Below are positions 52,818 to 61,875 of a stretch of 64,000 nt of DNA, piece after piece; the first letter of the stretch is position 1; each line of letters opens with the position of its first letter. The position numbers and the translations under genes are program-made. The stretch is taken from assembly GCA_020846535.1 (NCBI GenBank), contig JADLDR010000040.1, positions 17,613 to 81,612 of the forward strand. Reading direction: 5' to 3'. Origin of the DNA: Armatimonadota bacterium. Lineage in GTDB: Bacteria; Armatimonadota; JADLDR01. The notes beneath the pieces were generated by a model, which was not told the DNA's origin, ran no database searches, and saw only the letters and a list, made by a program, of their open reading frames with translations.

Positions 52818-53723
52818 GAGCCTATCCCAAAAGGGAAAATCAACCGATAATCCTCCTGAGACATCTTGCGCCTCAGGAGGAAACACCCTGAGTGAGAACC
52901 CCGTCCGTCGGGATGGGCGGATGCCCGATGCACTCTGGGAGCAGATCGAACCGTTGTTACCGCCCGGCAAGCCCCATCCGTTGGGGTGTCACCGGTGCCG
53001 ACTGGACCACCGCAAGGCCATGGATGCCCTCTTCTTTGTGTTACGCACCGGCATGCCCTGGAACGCCCTGAAGGAGACGGGGATCTGCTCCAGCAGCAGT
53101 GCCCATCGGCGCTTTCAAGAATGGACCCAGGCCGGGGTCTTTGCCACCCTCTGGAAGCAGGGCCTGGAGACCTATGAGGCGCTGGTGGGCTTGGACTGGG
53201 CCTGGCAAGCGATGGATGGAGCGATGCCCCAAGCGCCGTTGGGTGGGGAACAACACCGGCCAGAACCCGACGGGTCGGGGCAAGACGGGCACGAAACGGA
53301 GTCTGCACACCGAAGGGGCCGGCATCCCGGTCGGGCTGGCGGTCGAAGGGGCCAACCGCAACGACTTCAAGAGGGTGCGCGAGACGCTGGAGAGCATCCC
53401 GGTGGAGCGCCCGACTCCGAGTGAGGCCGATCCCCAAGGGATGAGTATGGACAAAGGGTATGACTACCGCGAAGTGTATGACCGGGTCGGTGAGTTCGGG
53501 TATACGGCCCACATCCGAGCGCGGGGTGAAGAGGCCCAAGCGATCCAGCACGAAGCGGGTTACAAGGCGAGACGGTGGGGGGTGGAGCGGACACATAGTG
53601 GGATGAACCGCTTTCGGCGGATCTTGATCCGCTGGGAGAAGAAAGCGGACCATTATTTGGCGTTGTTGCATTGGGTTTGTGCCGACATGACTTACAGAAA
53701 AGCGGGCCTTTTGGGATAGGCTC
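52818..53723 (+). mobile_element. IS5-type insertion sequence
   Basis: GAGCCTATCCCAAAAGG at 52818-52834 and CCTTTTGGGATAGGCTC at 53707-53723 are perfect 17-bp terminal inverted repeats. The 906-bp length and two-frame transposase fit the small IS5 subgroups (IS427/ISL2/IS1031 type). The flanks (GAA left, TTA right) do not match, so one side has been changed since insertion. A 78-bp MITE with the same ends is at 62277-62360. Confidence 0.88.
52888..53719 (+). CDS. IS5-family transposase, two overlapping frames
   Basis: The first frame begins at about 52888 (a CTG after AGGAGG) or ATG 52921. It reads M-P-D-A-L-W-E-Q-I-E-P-L-L-P, then L-R-T-G-M-P-W-N-A-L, and has the first catalytic Asp in Q-A-M-D-G-A-M. 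The second frame holds T-G-Q-N-P-T-G-R-G-K-T-G-T-K, then M-S-M-D-K-G-Y-D-Y (second Asp) and W-G-V-E-R-T-H-S-G-M-N-R-F-R-R (Glu). The switch lies near 53230-53260 and needs +1 (or -2). IS5 subgroups of this size often use a programmed shift, commonly quoted as -1, so this one may be a variant or a disabling indel. Confidence 0.75.
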
Positions 53724-54549
53724 TTACGTATTCGTATTTTTTCAAAACACCGGTGCCAATGTACATGGGCCAGTCTGGTGTTGGATAGCTGTGGATACCG
53801 TCTTGGGTAAAGTTGTAGAGTATCTTGCTAGCTATTTTCCCATTCTTATTTCGACGGCACCGGGACTAACCGGAGAGCAGGCGATGACATCTGCGATGAA
53901 TGCTCTTCTGGATGTTCCTGGAGAACCGGGCACGGTGGAAGAGCTTTTTGTGGCCCAGCCGGATGCTCTAGGGTTAGAACGTCTCGTTTACCGATTGACC
54001 TTCACCGGAGTGGGAGTGGCGGATCACACGGACTCAAACACCTATGTCGCTATGGTGGATGCTTTCGATGGTTCTGTTTACTATTGGGATATACGAATGG
54101 GTTTGCCCACCAAAAGCAATGGTGCTTCGATTGCCGGGGCACATACTGTTCGTCCGATAAAAAAGTTTCTTCCTACCTCCAAATCACCGGTAGTAATATG
54201 GAATGGCCGCAAAGTATCACTGGGGTACCCTCCGATCTTAGCTGACGACCTCCCTTATATCTATATAGGCTATCTGTGCTATGGCGCGCCTGGTAGCAAA
54301 TTGGTATATCGCAACCGTAAGCAGGTCGTTATTGCAGGAGGCGGTCGTTATCTGGTATTCAGTCTCAACTCACGGTGGTATCAGATTAATAACCGGAAGC
54401 AGCGGATGCCTGCCAAGCCGGTCATCGTCAAAGGGCGCTGTTATGTCCCGTTGGAGGTGGCCCAAAAGGTCTTGCCGTTCCGGATTCGCTATGAGGCGAA
54501 GGGCAGGCAGGTATGTTTCGACTCTCTGCCACAGGCGGGCAAACTCTGA
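53724..54549 (+). CDS. Secreted PepSY-like and stalk-domain protein, 5' end cut by IS5
   Basis: The frame runs from the IS5 end to the stop at 54549, about 275 residues, and its own start is missing. Residues about 30-100 read L-T-G-E-Q-A-M-T-S-A-M-N-A-L-L, then L-V-Y-R-L-T-F-T-G and T-Y-V-A-M-V-D-A-F-D-G-S-V-Y-Y-W-D, like a PepSY/YPEB module. The C-terminal 120 residues resemble the copper amine oxidase N-terminal 'stalk' fold: S-P-V-V-I-W-N-G-R-K-V, then K-G-R-C-Y-V-P-L-E-V-A-Q-K-V-L. Both suggest an extracellular protein. It is followed by an intrinsic terminator. The upstream half is not found nearby. Confidence 0.65.
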
Positions 54550-54580
54550 ACGGTTCCTTCATGACGGAACCCGAATGTCC

Positions 54581-54618
54581 ACCCCTTCTTCAGCAACAGA
54601 AGCAGGGATATTTTTTTG
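54581..54618 (+). terminator. Degraded intrinsic terminator (duplicate of 58734)
   Basis: CCCCTTCTTC and AGAAGCAGGG pair imperfectly and are followed by ATATTTTTTTG. The sequence corresponds base for base, with changes, to the better terminator at 58734-58768. Confidence 0.7.
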
Positions 54619-54643
54619 TCTGACTGCCAGGCCAAGCAATGCC

Positions 54644-54928
54644 TCAGCCCCTCTCCTCCAGAAACACCCTTTCATACACGGCCCGCACCTGGCGGGCATG
54701 GTGGCGGTGGCGTTCGCGGAGGTGGTCGGCGGAGGCGAAGCCCAGGGCGCGGGCCAGGCGGAGCGATTCGGCGGGGGCGGAGGGCAGGCTATCTTGGGCC
54801 AGCCCGGAGCGGAGGAAGAGCCTGTTGCGCGCCCGGCTGAGGAAGCGGTAGGCGTCCTGAAGGGCGCGGGCTTCCTTTTGGGCGATCTGGGAGGCGGCGG
54901 CCATGGCGGGCAGGGCCTCGAAGGTGTT
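54644..54928 (-). pseudogene. Duplicate of the glnE 3' end
   Basis: The last 93 or so codons of glnE (from N-T-F-E-A-L-P-A-M-A-A-A-S to V-F-L-E-E-R) are repeated here with about ten amino-acid changes (for example Q-I-A-Q-K for L-I-A-Q-R). The open frame continues upstream into unrelated sequence. The 5' nine tenths of the gene, including both catalytic domains, are absent, so no function is expected. Confidence 0.88.
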
Positions 54929-54934
54929 CAGGCT

Positions 54935-55255
54935 ATCCCCAGCGCTATGCCCACGCGCCCTACATTGGCCCGGGTCCGGTGGAGAAGGCCCTGATCTGTT
55001 GGTGGCGCGACGGCTCAAGAACCAGGGGATGCACTGGCCGGAACAGAGGGTGATGCGGGGTGTGCGGGGCGGACCTGGCGCTTCAACCAGGAGTGGGATG
55101 CCTACTGGACGGGCCTTCACCCGCTTGGGGATCAGATCCAACAGGTATCGGCCAGGTGCGAGCGAGCGTGGATGCCTTGGGCAATCGCACGAGCTCTCTC
55201 TATGATGCAATAGGGCGTCACATCGGTATTCAGGATGCACGCGGCCACTGGCGAA
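54935..55255 (+). pseudogene. Mosaic of transposase and RHS-repeat fragments
   Basis: In shifting frames the text gives Y-A-H-A-P-Y-I-G-P-G-P-V-E-K-A-L, then L-L-V-A-R-R-L-K-N-Q-G-M-H-W (an ISKra4/UPF0236-like transposase C-terminus) and F-N-Q-E-W-D-A-Y-W. It is followed by V-D-A-L-G-N-R-T-S-S-L-Y-D-A-I-G-R-H, an RHS/YD repeat. The pieces are short and out of frame with each other. The transposase family is a guess; the YD repeat is clear. Confidence 0.5.
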
Positions 55256-55309
55256 CGATCCGCTTGATCCCATCGGTTTTGCAGGCTAAAAATATTTTCA
55301 CATCACCCC

Positions 55310-55337
55310 TTGACATTTTTTTCTATTGTGATAGAAT
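55310..55337 (+). promoter_or_regulatory. Strong promoter of the AT-rich secreted-protein block
   Basis: A perfect TTGACA (55310-55315) and TAGAAT (55332-55337) are 16 bases apart. It lies 150 bases before the first gene of the block. The space 55338-55490 is AT-rich and holds no gene. Confidence 0.65.
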
Positions 55338-55490
55338 CTTCAAAAGCACAAATCAGTTGGTTTCGGTTTGGAGCCGTGAGGATGATCTGCCCTGCTCATT
55401 CTAACCTCTGGGAAAAAACCTAGAATCAATTCCAAGGAAAATTATTCAAGCAATAAAATAATAATATATACTGTATAGGAGAAAAGTAAG

Positions 55491-55997
55491 ATGAAACAAG
55501 ATTTTATATATATAGTACTTATATTTACTCTGATAAGTAACCGTTGGGATCACTCGCCCGACTGTTGGCAAAGCTCTCAAGTGCAGATTATTCTGTATAA
55601 GCAAGGCCGGGAAATACCTTTAAAGTCTGATACTAACACTTTCACGAGCCTGCTAGCGACTGTAGAAGATGCTGTAGCTCACTCTTCAGGAATTCTGTCA
55701 TCTGCTTGGCCCGGGCTATTGGACCGTATGACCCAAAGGCAAACGGTACTCATGGTCACCTATCCCACTTGCCCCAAACAATTATCGTTAGCTCGTCGGA
55801 TACCCCAAAGCATACGATTTGATCGGATATGGATTCCGATCCCCTCTAGCCTTGACCCCTCAGAGCGATCACTGGTTATGTTCAGGGGATGCGGGACGCA
55901 GCATAGACTGCCGGCTATGAGGAGTCGAGGGCCATATCAAGCGAAAATTCGCATATTGCTTAAAGAAATGGGCTATGAAGTGCCTTTAAGCCCATAA
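55491..55997 (+). CDS. Hypothetical protein of the AT-rich block (168 aa)
   Basis: I do not recognise a family. The N-terminus is hydrophobic (I-Y-I-V-L-I-F-T-L-I), a possible short signal segment followed by N-R-W-D-H-S-P-D-C-W. The body is strand-rich, with V-Q-I-I-L-Y-K-Q-G-R-E-I-P-L and T-V-L-M-V-T-Y-P-T-C-P-K-Q, and ends K-I-R-I-L-L-K-E-M-G-Y-E-V-P. The start follows GGAGAAAAG. Codon use is AT-rich, like the two genes that follow and unlike the rest of the window. Its place at the head of the block suggests it works with the peptidase-like gene. Confidence 0.6.
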   Translation: MKQDFIYIVLIFTLISNRWDHSPDCWQSSQVQIILYKQGREIPLKSDTNTFTSLLATVEDAVAHSSGILSSAWPGLLDRMTQRQTVLMVTYPTCPKQLSLARRIPQSIRFDRIWIPIPSSLDPSERSLVMFRGCGTQHRLPAMRSRGPYQAKIRILLKEMGYEVPLSP

Positions 55998-56089
55998 TGA
56001 CTGTCTGACTCATAATTAAAAAGAAGTGATAATTATATTTATGAAACACGATATAACTTTACTTGAGTTATAAAAGGAGAAGAAATAAG

Positions 56090-57133
56090 ATGTATAGTAT
56101 AAGATGGCTTTTTCTACTCGTAAGTTCAATCCTGGGTACGATTGTGGTAAGCAGCTATCAGCCGGTTGGGGCAACCTGTACAGCAGGATTGATCGGTATG
56201 CCTCCTATGGGACCCAAAACATTTTCAGGTACTGCTTGCAGTATTTCTGCTTGGGTCATTACTGATATAGGTTACATTACAGAAGGGGCTATTTATATTG
56301 GAGGCGAGCGAACTAAATGGATATGTCCAGCGAATCAGTCATCACGCTTGGATTTTGGGGTGACTTTCGATTCGACTCACTTCAGCCATAATAGCTCAAT
56401 CTTGATTGAAGTGTGGGGAAAAAATAGTTTAGGCCAAGAGGGAAGAAGTCAACGTATCTTTTTAGATAAAATCTATAATAAGTATTCTGTTTTCTGCTAT
56501 AATGAGATTGAGCATAACGATAATCCTCCTCCGTTCGCATGGCCGACATTTACAGCTATTAAGAGCTATTTGGGGGAAATGCGTCATGGACAGACATATG
56601 CTTCACAGAGTGGCTGGAATAAAGCGAATGTACTGAATAGTGTTAAGCTAGATACGGCTATTCATATTGCAACGCATGGAATAAATGATCAGGGTGTTTA
56701 TATAATAATATCTGATATTTATAATGGAAATAATAATGAAGAACTAATATGGTCTGTTGACGTTGCAATAGCTAGACAATATCGAACAGCAATTGTACCG
56801 GTTAACTTGGTATACATTAATGCTTGTGAAACTTGGGATATAAATGCCCAGTTATGGGCGGACACATATGGTATATCAAGTAGTTCTCTGAACCGGGCAT
56901 ATGTAGGTTGGTATCATAGTCCCGAAATAGTTGCAGCCCAAAAAGCAGCCATTCAGTTCTGGGCACTCATTCGCTTGGGTAATATCGTATCTTATGCAAC
57001 GACTTCAGCTCAGGCTATGTATAATTATAATTATCCAGATCATGGAGATGAAGGTCTTGCCAGAACAGGTGACAGCGATACCAAATTACATGGGGTATAT
57101 CACGGAGAAAGCTGGGAACAATGGTGGCGATAA
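56090..57133 (+). CDS. Secreted clan CD (caspase/CHAT-like) peptidase, predicted
   Basis: A 347-residue protein with a signal peptide (W-L-F-L-L-V-S-S-I-L-G-T-I-V-V). The N-terminal third is a beta domain (Q-S-S-R-L-D-F-G-V-T-F). The second half carries T-A-I-H-I-A-T-H-G, with His196, and L-V-Y-I-N-A-C-E-T-W, with Cys246. This is the HG...AC dyad of clan CD peptidases (caspase, gingipain, CHAT), at the normal spacing of about 50 residues. I infer a secreted cysteine peptidase or a catalytically related sensor. ATG 56090 follows AAAGGAGAAG. Composition is AT-rich. The gene for a PepSY-like protein follows after 62 bases. Confidence 0.65.
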   Translation: MYSIRWLFLLVSSILGTIVVSSYQPVGATCTAGLIGMPPMGPKTFSGTACSISAWVITDIGYITEGAIYIGGERTKWICPANQSSRLDFGVTFDSTHFSHNSSILIEVWGKNSLGQEGRSQRIFLDKIYNKYSVFCYNEIEHNDNPPPFAWPTFTAIKSYLGEMRHGQTYASQSGWNKANVLNSVKLDTAIHIATHGINDQGVYIIISDIYNGNNNEELIWSVDVAIARQYRTAIVPVNLVYINACETWDINAQLWADTYGISSSSLNRAYVGWYHSPEIVAAQKAAIQFWALIRLGNIVSYATTSAQAMYNYNYPDHGDEGLARTGDSDTKLHGVYHGESWEQWWR

Positions 57134-57195
57134 ACACAAATTGGTACAGATGCATTTTAAACGTACCAGTAATCATATTATAACGGAGGATCAGA

Positions 57196-58515
57196 ATGAA
57201 ATATATTTTGTTCGTAAATCTTTTTTGGTGGGCCATTTCTGTGGCAACTGCTAACATTACCCAGCAAGATGCCAAGCAGAACGCCAAAGGCTTTTTGAGC
57301 GTTATAGGAATACAAGAGCAAGAATCCGATCTAAAGCTAGGTGTGACTCTGCAAGACCGAACTCCAGAAGGGTGCATCGTATGGGCTTTTACCTTCTCCA
57401 AAGGCAGAATTAATGTAGATACTGAGTCTGGAAAAGTCATTGAATTTGATAATATCCGTCTGTATGAGACTAACAAACAGCGACTAGCCAACGGAGAAAC
57501 CCCAGTTATCAAAACCACTGAGGAGGCTATCCGACGAGCACAGATGATTGCTCAAAAGCTGAACATGCTAACCAGCAACACAGTAATTGACCAAGCCCAT
57601 ATTATAACCTTTTCTGGTACTCATGGTAACGCTCGCGTTGTCTATGTTGATTCTCCGTCTGAAATACTCGACGAAGGCCATTGGGATATTATATTTCGAC
57701 GAGTCCATAACAGCTATCTAACCCCAGATTACATAGCCATAGGGATCGATTTATATGAAGGGGATATCATAAATTTACGCTATAGCTGGCGAACTCCGCT
57801 ATGCGATACAACAGTAAGCCTGAGCGAAGAACAAGCTGCCCGTCTGGCTTTAGAAGGGCTTGCCTCGCGAGGGATATCGGCTATAGCTATAAAACAAGAG
57901 AATAGTTCACATTATCCATTGTTACGGATAGTATTCCCAAATTATGGTTGGACAGAGTATAGTATTAAGGAGAATCAAGTTCCTTTTACTCGTCTGTCTT
58001 GGATAGTCAGGGTCGCTGATCCCTTAACATCGAAACGTATAGGGCACGTCTGGATTGACGCTGCCACTGGCGAATGGCTAGGGGGTGATCAAGTAATGGG
58101 CAAACGTAATCTAATCAAATCATTGACCCCTCAAGCCAACGCCAAAGCTTATCTAATTTCTCAATTTGTGGCTTCAAAGAAAGTTGATCTGCATCTCATC
58201 TCAATTGGTCGTGTAACCCTTCGACGAACAGATAGGACTAGGTGGTTGGCACTGGGATCGTTATTATCAACTCTTGTCATACAAGATAAAGACTCTGTAA
58301 GAGCAGGTAAAGAATGTCTGACCTTTATCCAGCAAGCATGTTCCCATCATCTAATGATGGGAACTAATGGATTAAGCTTGGAAGGGCCGGATGTACCAGG
58401 AGGGAGGCTGAACTTTGCAGCAGACGAAGCCTTCCTGCAAAAGCTAGCAGGGATTGCATCGCCATTGGCAAGCATCCAAAAAGAAATAAGCATTGAAAAT
58501 AATAATAAACACTAA
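57196..58515 (+). CDS. Secreted PepSY/YPEB-like protein
   Basis: A 439-residue protein with a signal peptide (F-V-N-L-F-W-W-A-I-S-V-A-T-A). It contains repeated PepSY-like patterns: I-T-Q-Q-D-A-K-Q-N-A-K-G-F-L, then G-R-I-N-V-D-T-E-S-G-K-V-I-E-F and, further on, L-S-E-E-Q-A-A-R-L-A-L-E-G-L and H-V-W-I-D-A-A-T-G-E-W-L-G-G. Such modules occur in peptidase propeptides and are thought to inhibit or guide peptidases. That makes it a candidate partner of the peptidase-like protein upstream; this pairing is inference. The last 100 residues are unique. The start follows ACGGAGG. Two terminators follow. Confidence 0.7.
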   Translation: MKYILFVNLFWWAISVATANITQQDAKQNAKGFLSVIGIQEQESDLKLGVTLQDRTPEGCIVWAFTFSKGRINVDTESGKVIEFDNIRLYETNKQRLANGETPVIKTTEEAIRRAQMIAQKLNMLTSNTVIDQAHIITFSGTHGNARVVYVDSPSEILDEGHWDIIFRRVHNSYLTPDYIAIGIDLYEGDIINLRYSWRTPLCDTTVSLSEEQAARLALEGLASRGISAIAIKQENSSHYPLLRIVFPNYGWTEYSIKENQVPFTRLSWIVRVADPLTSKRIGHVWIDAATGEWLGGDQVMGKRNLIKSLTPQANAKAYLISQFVASKKVDLHLISIGRVTLRRTDRTRWLALGSLLSTLVIQDKDSVRAGKECLTFIQQACSHHLMMGTNGLSLEGPDVPGGRLNFAADEAFLQKLAGIASPLASIQKEISIENNNKH

Positions 58516-58640
58516 AACGTATGAATTTGCTTCTGATATCACTATATCCTACCGTATGTTGTTTGAATTAGCGAAACAAAAACAGGCAGAGCCGCTGGTC
58601 CATCAAGGCTAAATACGGATAGCTATACCAAAGTAGACGG

Positions 58641-58677
58641 CAGGCCAGGGGTACTCCAAGAGTCGCCTGGCCTGTTT
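58641..58677 (+). terminator. Intrinsic terminator of the AT-rich block
   Basis: CAGGCCAGG (58641-58649) and CCTGGCCTG (58666-58674) form a nine-base perfect stem and are followed by TTTC. Confidence 0.6.
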
Positions 58678-58733
58678 CATAGAGCGAAAGAGTGGAGTTC
58701 AACTTCATCTCATCATGATATACGGAATGTCCA

Positions 58734-58768
58734 CCCCTGCTTCTGTTGCCGAAGCAGGGGTATTTTTT
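58734..58768 (+). terminator. Strong intrinsic terminator next to glnE
   Basis: CCCCTGCTTC and GAAGCAGGGG form a perfect ten-base stem with a seven-base loop, followed by TATTTTTT. It ends plus-strand transcription before the convergent glnE gene. Confidence 0.85.
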
Positions 58769-58794
58769 ACCTGACTGCCAGGCCCATCCCAGCC

Positions 58795-61700
58795 TCAGTC
58801 CCTCTCCTCCAGAAACACCCTGTCATAGACGGCCCGCACCTGGCGGGCGTGGTGGCGGTGGCGTTCGCGGAGGCGGTCGGCGGAGGCGAAGCCCAGGGCG
58901 CGGGCCAGGCGGAGCGATTCGGCGGGGCCGGAAGGCAGGCTGTCCTGGGCCAGGCCGGAGCGGAGGAAGAGCATGTTCCGCGCCCGGCTGAGGAAGCGGT
59001 AGGCGTCCTGAAGGGCGCGGGCTTCCCTTTGGGCGATCAGGGAGGCGGCGGCCATGGCGGGCAGGGCCTCGAAGGTGTTTTTACCCTGCAAGGCCGGGAA
59101 ACGGCCTCCATAGCGGAGCTGGCAGGACTGGACAAGGAACTCGATATCGGTCAGGCCGCCGTAGCCGAGTTTGAGGTCGCGCTCCCGTTCCTCCGGGCGA
59201 AGGCGCTCCCGCTCGATCCGCAGCTTCACGGCCCGTATCTCCTCCATCATCTCCTCCGGCAGCTCCGAAGGGTAGAGGACAGGCTGCAAGAGGGCGAGAA
59301 ACGCCTGACAGACCGCCGGATCGCCTGCGGCGGGCCGCGCCCGCAGGAGGGACTGCTTTTCCCAGGTCAGGGCGCGTCCGGCATAGTAGCTCCGGCAGGT
59401 CTCCAGGTGCGTTACCGGGGAGCCTTTCTTGCCCTCGGGCCGGAGCCGGAGGTCGATTTCGTAGAGCGAGCCTGCTGCGGTGAGCGCCTTGAAAGCCTGG
59501 TTTATCTCGGTGGAGAGGCGCAGCAGCCCGGAGTAGCGCCGGTAGGAAGCCTCGGGGTCGGGCGGCAGGCCCTTGGGGTTGTCGTAGAGGTAGATCAGAT
59601 CCAGGTCGGAGGCGTAGTGCATCTCGCGCCCCCCCAGCCGCCCGCAGGCGGCGATCCCGAAAGCCTCCGGCGCGTTCTCATCGGGATGATCGCGGCTCCA
59701 GAGCAGGCGAAGGGCCTCCCGGAGGCACAGGTCGGCGATCTCGGATAACTGCCGCTGGATGTCCACCACATCGGCGCTGTAAACGATATCCCGCACCGCC
59801 GTTTTGAGTAGGTTTTTCCGCTTGAAGCGGCGCAGGGCTTCCAGCCTGTCCTCGAAGCGGCGAAAATAGGCGCTGTAGTCCTCCCACTCCGCCTGCAAGT
59901 CCTCCGCGTCGGGCGGCCTTTCCAGGGAGGCGGTGTCGTAGAGGGCATCGATGAGTTCCGGGCTGCGCTCCAGGAGGCCGGTCAGGAAGCCGCTCGTGCC
60001 GGTCGCCTGGCAGAGAATGCGGAGGGCCTCCGGCTGGGCGGCCAGGGTGGTATAGAAGACGTTCCGGCTCAGCCCGAACCGGCCCAGCATTTCGATCCCG
60101 GCGAGGGAGGCGTCCGGGTGAGGGGTGGCGGCGGCGGCCTCCAGCAGCGGGTCGGCGATGGCGGCAAAGCCCCGGCGCACCTCCCAGGCGGTCGGGTTGT
60201 CCAGCGGCCCCCCGGCCAGGCGGGAGAGGATTTCGCAGGAGCGATCCGGCTCCTGAAAGCCCATGTCTGCCAGCCTGTCCTTCAATTTCTCCTGAAGGGC
60301 GGGCGCGTCGAGGCCGTAGAGCAGCATCCCCAACTGGCCGGGAGGCGGCTCCCCGCCGTCCACGGTCAGGTAAAAAAGCTCCACGAAAAGGGCGCGCACC
60401 CGTTCCGCCCGCTCCCGGTATTCCCGGTAGAACGCCGCCCCGCTTTTGCGCCCCATGCGCCAGGCCAGCCGGTCGAGTTCCTCAGTGTCGGCGGGCAGGG
60501 TGCGGACCGGCAGATCGGCGAGAAGCTGCAAGCGGTGTTCCACCGTGCGGAAGAAGCGGTAGTTCTGGGCCAGGATATCCTTTTCCCAGGGCTTGAGGAG
60601 TCCGGCGTCCTCCAGCCGATCCAGGGCTTTCAGGGTGTTGCCGGTGCGAAGTGCGGGGTTGCCGCCCCCGAAGAGCAGTTGAAGAAGCTGCACGGCGAAC
60701 TCGATGTCCCGGATAGCGCCCCGGCCCTCCTTGACATTGGTGTAGGTTTCCCCCGCCGAGGCGACCTTCAGTTCCACCGCCTCCTTGTTGGAGCGAATAT
60801 CGGCGATGAGGTCTGCGGAGATCAGCTTCGGGTAGGCGACCTCTGCCGCCATCGCCTCGAACCGCTCTCCCAGCGGGCGGTCTCCGGCGAGGAATCGGGC
60901 CTTGAGAAGGGCCTGCCTCTCCCAGAACTCCACCCACTGCGACCAGTATTCCCGGTAGGCCCCCAGGCTTCGCGCCAGGGAGCCGAACCGCCCTTCGGGC
61001 CGGAGCCGCATATCCACCCGGAAGGCAAACCCCTCGCCGGTCGGCTGCTGGAGCGCAGCCACTGTCCTCTCGGCCAGCTTATTGGCATAGGCGATATGCT
61101 CCGAACGGGCCGTATCGGGGCTGTCCCAGACGAAGACCAGGTCGATATCGGAGCTGTAATTGAGTTCCGCGCCCCCCAGCTTCCCCATCCCGACCACCGC
61201 AAAGGACACCGCACCCGCCGCCTCGGGATATCGCTCCCCGAGTTCCTCACGGCAGATTTCGAGGGCTTTTTGCGTCAGGACTTCCGCGAGAGCCGAAATT
61301 TTGGCGGCGGTGACCGGCATGGCGTCGAAGCCCATGATATCCAGCCAGGCGATGGCGAGAACCCCGCGGCGCTTCACCCGGCGCAGCGCGTCCCGGCGGG
61401 CGACAGGGTCGGGGAAGACGCGCAGGAGCCTGTCCAGTTCCCGGCCCAGGTATTGCCCGAAGCGCCCGGGGTCTGCCGGGGGAGGATCAAGCAGGAGGTC
61501 GTAATACTGGGGGTCCCGGATCAGGATGCCGGCCAGGTAGTCGCTCGTTCCGAAAAGGCGAAGCAGGCCCTCCAGGAAGCGGGCGTCCTGGAGCAGAAGG
61601 CTGTAGACTGTGGACGGATTGCTGGTATGGGACGCCCACCGCTCGAAATGGTTCAGGGCCATATCCGGGGCGGCGTGGGCGGTCAGAAGCGGAAGCGTCT

Positions 61701-61875
61701 GGGCGATCAGGTCGAGGCCGACCGGATGCCCTTCAGCCTGACGCCAGAGCGATTGAAGGCTCCGGGCCGCCTGCAAGGGATCCGCAAAGCGAACCGGCTT
61801 CAGGGCGGCGGCGGCCTCCCCGGAGGCGATCTCCGACCTGAAGAGGAATTCCAGGGAAAAGGCATCCGGATTCAT
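58795..61875 (-). CDS. glnE: Bifunctional glutamine synthetase adenylyltransferase/deadenylylase
   Basis: A full-length 1026-residue GlnE. The N-terminal (deadenylylating) nucleotidyltransferase domain has G-M-G-K-L-G-G-A-E-L-N-Y-S-S-D-I-D-L, with Asp243 and Asp245 as metal ligands. The C-terminal (adenylylating) domain has A-C-G-R-L-G-G-R-E-M-H-Y-A-S-D-L-D-L near residue 757. Between them are the helical PII-responsive regions. It adds or removes AMP on glutamine synthetase in response to nitrogen status. Neither glnA nor glnB is in the window. A small membrane protein gene lies 19 bases upstream. The last 93 codons are duplicated at 54644-54928. Confidence 0.95.
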   Translation of the reverse strand: MNPDAFSLEFLFRSEIASGEAAAALKPVRFADPLQAARSLQSLWRQAEGHPVGLDLIAQTLPLLTAHAAPDMALNHFERWASHTSNPSTVYSLLLQDARFLEGLLRLFGTSDYLAGILIRDPQYYDLLLDPPPADPGRFGQYLGRELDRLLRVFPDPVARRDALRRVKRRGVLAIAWLDIMGFDAMPVTAAKISALAEVLTQKALEICREELGERYPEAAGAVSFAVVGMGKLGGAELNYSSDIDLVFVWDSPDTARSEHIAYANKLAERTVAALQQPTGEGFAFRVDMRLRPEGRFGSLARSLGAYREYWSQWVEFWERQALLKARFLAGDRPLGERFEAMAAEVAYPKLISADLIADIRSNKEAVELKVASAGETYTNVKEGRGAIRDIEFAVQLLQLLFGGGNPALRTGNTLKALDRLEDAGLLKPWEKDILAQNYRFFRTVEHRLQLLADLPVRTLPADTEELDRLAWRMGRKSGAAFYREYRERAERVRALFVELFYLTVDGGEPPPGQLGMLLYGLDAPALQEKLKDRLADMGFQEPDRSCEILSRLAGGPLDNPTAWEVRRGFAAIADPLLEAAAATPHPDASLAGIEMLGRFGLSRNVFYTTLAAQPEALRILCQATGTSGFLTGLLERSPELIDALYDTASLERPPDAEDLQAEWEDYSAYFRRFEDRLEALRRFKRKNLLKTAVRDIVYSADVVDIQRQLSEIADLCLREALRLLWSRDHPDENAPEAFGIAACGRLGGREMHYASDLDLIYLYDNPKGLPPDPEASYRRYSGLLRLSTEINQAFKALTAAGSLYEIDLRLRPEGKKGSPVTHLETCRSYYAGRALTWEKQSLLRARPAAGDPAVCQAFLALLQPVLYPSELPEEMMEEIRAVKLRIERERLRPEERERDLKLGYGGLTDIEFLVQSCQLRYGGRFPALQGKNTFEALPAMAAASLIAQREARALQDAYRFLSRARNMLFLRSGLAQDSLPSGPAESLRLARALGFASADRLRERHRHHARQVRAVYDRVFLEERD

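What the first reader, a model, noticed from the sequence alone, without database searches (positions are those of the whole stretch)
55310..58680. AT-rich operon pairing a secreted caspase/CHAT-like peptidase with a PepSY-like protein
Three AT-rich genes sit in a GC-rich genome under one strong promoter and end in terminators. The middle one is exported and has the HG (His196) and AC (Cys246) dyad of clan CD peptidases. The next is exported and has PepSY-like modules, which elsewhere inhibit or chaperone peptidases. The first is an unknown small protein. A peptidase, candidate inhibitor and unknown third partner that are all exported would be a self-contained extracellular system. I know of no named system with this gene order.
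Basis: partly seen in the sequence, partly recalled or inferred. Interest (0 to 1): 0.72.

Follow-up and report, generated by a model that had tools for sequence, protein, structure and literature searches.

The report
Exported caspase-like peptidase with PepSY partner
Two neighbouring genes encode a predicted exported caspase-fold enzyme and a PepSY-like protein that likely restrains or folds it, and the same gene pair recurs, sometimes in tandem, across genomes of a little-studied bacterial phylum.

The parts
55310..55337 (+). promoter-like site TTGACA-16-TAGAAT
   Evidence: 11 of 12 consensus matches, TG before the second hexamer; consensus match only
55491..55997 (+). first gene (168 aa), no known family, no convincing relatives; not part of the recurring unit
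   Evidence: ORF; no family; no relatives beyond E 0.005
56090..57133 (+). gene A (347 aa): predicted exported clan CD (caspase/CHAT/gingipain-fold) cysteine peptidase
   Evidence: model pLDDT 82.2, pTM 0.80; fold matches; family of relatives
56090..56173 (+). predicted signal peptide of A (residues 1-28)
   Evidence: read by eye; hydrophobic stretch ending before Ala28-Thr29, both invariant in the five own-genome copies
56675..56677 (+). codon of His196, predicted catalytic histidine
   Evidence: H in 50 of 50 rows that have a letter there; aligned with HG of 8tl0 and of legumain
56825..56827 (+). codon of Cys246, predicted catalytic cysteine
   Evidence: C in 54 of 54 rows that have a letter there; aligned with AC of 8tl0 and of legumain
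57196..58515 (+). gene B (439 aa): predicted exported PepSY-like protein, the recurring partner of A
   Evidence: family-level PepSY and DUF4901 matches; next to A in other loci
57196..57252 (+). predicted signal peptide of B (residues 1-19)
   Evidence: read by eye from the translation
57994..58074 (+). PepSY-like stretch of B (residues 267-293) that holds the motif DAATGEWLGG
   Evidence: weak Pfam match, 11.0 bits against a cut-off of 24; motif residues conserved among B proteins
58733..58761 (+). terminator-like stem with T-run, shared with the end of glnE on the other strand
   Evidence: 11-pair stem; second copy upstream at 54573

Best explanation
Genes 56090-57133 (A) and 57196-58515 (B) are a recurring two-gene unit: A carries a conserved His/Cys pair and is predicted to be an exported clan CD (caspase/CHAT/gingipain-fold) cysteine peptidase, and B, PepSY-like and also predicted to be exported, likely serves as A's dedicated pro-domain in trans, helping it fold and holding it inactive outside the cytoplasm until B is removed or degraded. 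Shown here: the dyad and its conservation, the gene pair, its recurrence, its tandem multiplication, and the co-divergence of A and B within genomes. Predicted: the fold of A and the export of both. Inferred: that A cuts proteins, that B binds A, and that binding inhibits. The split design would replace the pro-regions of the same chain that block the active site in other clan CD families, and if each A needs its own B, the pair has to duplicate as a unit, as it does.
For: Fold. Dyad: two residues after strands 190-194 and 240-244 in the model, where clan CD has it (PMC4357240, passages); 50 of 50 and 54 of 54; HG on HG and AC on AC against 8tl0 (E 7.9e-4) and legumain (E 0.13). PepSY nature of the B family: 10 of 13 members match PepSY at E up to 1, best 1.1e-4; 8 of 23 at E up to 0.1. 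Independent check: a whole-genome search with the PepSY profile gave one hit over the cut-off, on C249; that protein is a B, passes the DUF4901 cut-off, and the gene before it is A-like. Linkage: 27 of 28 A genes, 22 of 27 held out. Co-divergence: 10 of 5000 within-genome permutations reach the observed correlation. Lopsided loss: B without A in L149, L151, L153, intact B beside a truncated A in L150. PepSY described as an inhibitory pro-domain in M4 peptidases (PMC5078317, passages).
Against: Window B is below Pfam's PepSY cut-off and its fold prediction failed (pLDDT 29.6). No A-B fusion was found in the ORFs examined. In a third set, linkage was 4 of 10 loci, two of the six misses being clear A genes (L162, L164). 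The co-divergence signal is small in absolute terms: r 0.554 against a permuted mean of 0.518. Two loci have B before A, not after (L076, L080). A second A profile did not repeat the sequence match to CHAT and legumain. Nothing here tests activity, binding or inhibition.
Confidence: 0.5

Rival explanations
1. A is an active exported peptidase, but B is not its inhibitor: B presents substrates, anchors A to the envelope, or is itself A's substrate.
For: B is fused to fibronectin type III and carbohydrate-binding modules in L080, which would suit an adhesive or targeting role; some loci have two or three B genes after one A (L073, L132, L138; L163).
Against: Orphan B genes and the near-absence of A without a B-like neighbour in the first two sets fit a protective or folding role better; PepSY is described elsewhere as inhibitory (PMC5078317, passages).
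Confidence: 0.22
2. The pair is a competition weapon: A is a secreted peptidase that attacks neighbouring cells, and B is the private immunity protein.
For: Tandem arrays of diverged pairs (L133, L139); B without A; low identity among B proteins of one genome (9-23% in G192).
Against: No toxin-delivery module was seen; no PADLOC match (that library holds anti-phage defence only); no plasmid or viral-contig match.
Confidence: 0.12
3. A has the clan CD fold but does another reaction (peptide ligation, as some legumains do) or only binds.
For: Among its fold neighbours are plant asparaginyl ligases.
Against: The His/Cys dyad is kept in every aligned row that has a letter there, which argues against a mere binding role; ligation and hydrolysis share the dyad and are not told apart here.
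Confidence: 0.07
4. The three genes came in together as one foreign AT-rich cassette and form a self-contained three-gene system.
For: Low GC and low third-position GC, glnE 3' end on both sides, transposase remnant upstream.
Against: Four further A-B pairs and an A-like pair on C249 sit elsewhere in the same genome, and A genes are AT-rich there too (41-51% GC), so low GC goes at least partly with the family. The first gene has no copy beside any of them.
Confidence: 0.05

Closest known systems
CHAT peptidases (SAVED-CHAT, PDB 8tl0; Pfam PF12770)
   Different: No CHAT match over Pfam's cut-off in the A proteins scanned; A has a signal peptide and a beta-rich region in front; no SAVED domain was seen; PepSY-like partner
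Gingipain RgpB (family C25)
   Different: No Peptidase_C25 match in Pfam scans; the pro-domain of RgpB is part of the same chain, here the candidate is a separate gene; beta region before, not after, the catalytic domain (the gingipain order is recalled)
M4 metallopeptidases with PepSY pro-domain
   Same: PepSY-type module linked to an exported peptidase, described as inhibitory (PMC5078317, passages)
   Different: There the peptidase is a metallopeptidase and PepSY is in the same chain; here a clan CD cysteine peptidase and a separate gene
Staphopain-staphostatin type gene pairs (recalled, no call)
   Same: Exported cysteine peptidase with an inhibitor from the next gene
   Different: Papain-like peptidases and cytoplasmic inhibitors (recalled); here clan CD fold and a partner with a signal peptide

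Membership tests
Clan CD cysteine peptidases | His/Cys dyad in the order His then Cys, conserved | tested here: met
   H196 in 50 of 50 and C246 in 54 of 54 aligned rows with a letter, 59 rows in all
Clan CD cysteine peptidases | Caspase-like fold with the dyad at the C-terminal ends of strands 3 and 4 (PMC4357240, passages) | tested here: met
   On a predicted model only; His and Cys two residues after strands 190-194 and 240-244
Clan CD cysteine peptidases | Peptidase activity that depends on the cysteine | not testable with these tools
   needs purified protein
CHAT (PF12770) | Match over Pfam's curated cut-off | tested here: not met
   No CHAT match for window A at E up to 1 or in 20 relatives; 1 of 26 others at E 0.031, 14.2 bits of 24
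CHAT (PF12770) | Homology to solved CHAT domains | tested here: inconclusive
   E 7.9e-4 to 8tl0 with one profile, not repeated with another; top fold match
Gingipain family C25 (PF01364) | Match over Pfam's curated cut-off | tested here: not met
   No match. The genome search with PF01364 rang in none of its control genomes and shows nothing
PepSY / YcdB-YcdC repeat (PF03413, PF16244) | Window B over Pfam's curated cut-off | tested here: not met
   11.0 bits of 24
PepSY / YcdB-YcdC repeat (PF03413, PF16244) | B family related to PepSY/DUF4901 through its members | tested here: met
   10 of 13 members match PepSY at E up to 1, 8 of 23 at E up to 0.1; the C249 member passes the DUF4901 cut-off, 29.5 of 27 bits
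Peptidase with gene-neighbour inhibitor (staphostatin type, recalled) | Partner gene next to the peptidase gene | tested here: met
   27 of 28, 22 of 27 held out, 4 of 10 in a third set
Peptidase with gene-neighbour inhibitor (staphostatin type, recalled) | Partner inhibits the peptidase | not testable with these tools
   needs proteins

The most novel reading that the evidence does not exclude
Armatimonadota carry an undescribed, tandemly multiplied two-gene class of extracellular peptidase: a caspase/CHAT-fold enzyme whose pro-domain has been split off into its own exported PepSY-like gene and co-diversifies with it, giving a cell a panel of privately locked proteases.
Probability: 0.45. Interest if true: 0.75.

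Novelty: new variant of a known kind. Interest (0 to 1): 0.62.

Why it matters
PepSY is known as a pro-domain of metallopeptidases, and clan CD enzymes are kept silent mostly by parts of their own chain. A recurring pair that would put a PepSY-like protein in charge of a caspase-fold enzyme outside the cytoplasm, in up to four diverged tandem copies, makes two things directly testable: whether PepSY-like proteins control cysteine peptidases, and whether a clan CD pro-region can work in trans with private specificity. It would also suggest a function for many unannotated genes of this phylum.

Tried and rejected
Three-gene system: rejected. The first gene has no convincing relatives. Among neighbour ORFs of 100 aa or more in the fetched stretches no cluster exceeds 4 genomes, and those look generic by eye (prepilin-like, ABC ATPase, a cluster that includes a sigma factor-like ORF).

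Mobile carriage: no match in viral contigs or plasmid records. Named genome contigs: the first scan found no relative; the second gave two loci of one Armatimonadetes MAG.

Known systems: no NCBIfam or PADLOC match for the three proteins. The Peptidase_C25 search of the own genome rang nowhere, controls included, so it says nothing.

A-B fusion as proof of a pro-domain: no ORF matched both profiles in the first set or in the third.

B structure: unusable model, not searched further. Profile A11 against PDB sequences gave only a Cas2 chain at E 0.22, taken as chance, so the A5 result is supportive, not decisive. Profiles A1 and A2 against PDB sequences gave nothing of use.

A genes without a B hit: in the first two sets six of 55 (L086, L134 twice, L142, L145, L146). 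Their downstream ORFs have hhalign probabilities against the B profile of 3.5, 23.5, 0.1, 57.4, 7.1 and 22.2; of 150 control ORFs drawn from 287, one reaches 65.4 (the PepSY-like ORF 53671-54549 of this window) and all others are at 1.3 or below. In the third set six of 10 loci have no B hit: L156-L159 hold long proteins with weak A matches that look like other clan CD architectures; L162 and L164 hold clear A genes, with downstream probabilities of 5.6 and 0.3.

The 51 genomes with A at E 1e-5 or better include some of those weak matches (G066, G110, G118), and the search scored at most six candidates a genome, so the number is rough both ways.

Rows dropped: L130 and L136 were left out of the held-out test as the same contigs as L093 and L094. 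L089 was brought in by B, so of A-seeded first-set genes 26 of 27 have B. The co-divergence test used 41 of 49 linked pairs; left out were L081, L082, L083, L085, L087 and L091 and the short A genes of L129 and L133.

Papers: ten searches listed nothing that, by title and start of abstract, joins PepSY with a clan CD peptidase or describes this pair; only open-licence PMC text is covered. Passages seen: PMC5078317 and PMC4357240. All other papers: search listing only.

Full report
WHAT IS THERE. The stretch 55310-58761 holds three + strand genes of low GC (46, 40, 43%) in a window of 60% GC, behind a near-consensus promoter-like site at 55310-55337 and before a stem with T-run at 58733-58761. 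I call them P1 (55491-55997), A (56090-57133) and B (57196-58515). By eye A and B start with Sec-type signal peptides; P1 is doubtful. On both sides lies a copy of the 3' end of glnE with its terminator (54573-54911 and 58725-59062); the full glnE-like ORF is at 58795-61875 on the - strand (the name glnE is recalled, no family call was made). So the stretch sits at a rearranged site, but A and B are not strangers to this genome.

B IS PEPSY-LIKE. Window B is far below Pfam's cut-off (11 bits of 24). The family is clearer: 10 of 13 B proteins match PepSY at E up to 1 (best 1.1e-4) and 5 match the YcdB/YcdC repeat DUF4901; 8 of 23 match PepSY at E up to 0.1. A test from the other side: the PepSY profile run over the own genome gave two matches at E up to 0.1, one over the cut-off (24.1 bits), on contig C249. 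Its protein is a B (E 1e-11), is over the DUF4901 cut-off (29.5 of 27 bits; PepSY 19.7 when scanned alone), and the gene just upstream is A-like (E 1e-10) with a weak CHAT match. B's own structure prediction failed.

THE PAIR RECURS. In the own genome (6.14 Mb) the first search finds five A copies, each followed by B: the window, two in tandem on C8 (the second B interrupted by a TGA), one on C17, one on C114. To these comes the A-like pair on C249; a B lies at the edge of contig C38. The phylum is Armatimonadota: protein P0006, so labelled by NCBI, is 100% identical to the A protein of genome G002, listed as same phylum, and two named loci come from an uncultured Armatimonadetes bacterium. 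A-type matches at E 1e-5 or better occur in 51 of 291 genomes of the phylum, 41 of 194 good ones, the weakest of them probably other clan CD proteins. Iterating the own-genome profiles over 1908 ORFs of 29 sources gave 28 A genes, 27 with B next to them (25 after, 2 before), and 32 B ORFs, 30 of them in a run with A. With those profiles frozen, 18 held-out loci from 11 other genomes (1262 ORFs) gave 27 A genes, 22 with B directly downstream, and all 24 B hits in runs with A. Two loci of one genome hold four A-B pairs in a row (L133, one A there being a short frame, and L139). A third set of 10 loci, many chosen for long frames or weak matches, gave 4 of 10. P1 has no convincing relative, and no third gene is widely shared between the neighbourhoods.

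A AND B CHANGE TOGETHER. Over 41 pairs the distances of A and of B correlate (r 0.554). Most of that is kinship of the genomes: shuffling B among the pairs of each genome gives a mean of 0.518; but only 10 of 5000 shuffles reach the observed value, and within genomes alone r is 0.73 over 51 comparisons. The relation is lopsided: B occurs without A (L149, L151, L153) and intact beside a truncated A (L150), while five of the six A genes without a B hit in the first two sets are followed by an ORF that scores higher against the B profile than 149 of 150 controls. In the third set L162 would pass that test and L164 would not.

HOW IT LIKELY WORKS. A with so constant a dyad should be an active peptidase (inferred). 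A and B are predicted to be exported. [quoted passage not shown] The simplest reading is that B is such a pro-domain made as a separate protein: it meets A after export, helps it fold, and blocks it until removed. That explains duplication as a pair, co-divergence, and why A hardly exists without a B-like neighbour while B can outlive A. A substrate-presenting or anchoring role of B, and a weapon-and-immunity role of the pair, are not excluded.

NOVELTY. An exported peptidase with a partner inhibitor is a known kind; this combination of fold and partner, its spread in one phylum and its tandem arrays were not found in ten literature searches of open PMC text. I file it as a new variant of a known kind.

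Noticed in passing
window 53671-54549 +: ORF with a copper amine oxidase N-terminal domain (Pfam E 1.2e-11) behind a PepSY/B-like half (hhalign probability 65 against the B profile), directly after a transposase remnant.
   Followed up: partly
window 54573-54911 and 58725-59062: The 3' end of the glnE-like gene with its terminator occurs twice, on both sides of the AT-rich stretch; how the stretch got there is open.
   Followed up: partly
window 55060-55404 +: Fragment with a weak RHS-repeat match (E 0.016) just upstream of the promoter.
   Followed up: no
window 53099-53719 +: Transposase DDE-domain remnant (Pfam E 4e-13).
   Followed up: no
L151 4528-6054 +: An ECF-type sigma factor region (Sigma70_r4 E 4e-13) and a B-like protein lie in one open frame, without A nearby; whether one protein or two is open.
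   Followed up: no
L150 5909-7022 -: Intact B beside a 71-residue remnant of A in genome G043, which has another full pair (L075).
   Followed up: no
L080 8138-11332 - and L076 7105-10044 -: B lies before A and is carried on long proteins; in L080 with fibronectin type III and a carbohydrate-binding module.
   Followed up: partly
[not shown]
   Followed up: partly
own-genome A-B pairs (window, L019, L020, L021): In four of five pairs A has lower GC than its B, by up to 14 points; cause unknown.
   Followed up: no
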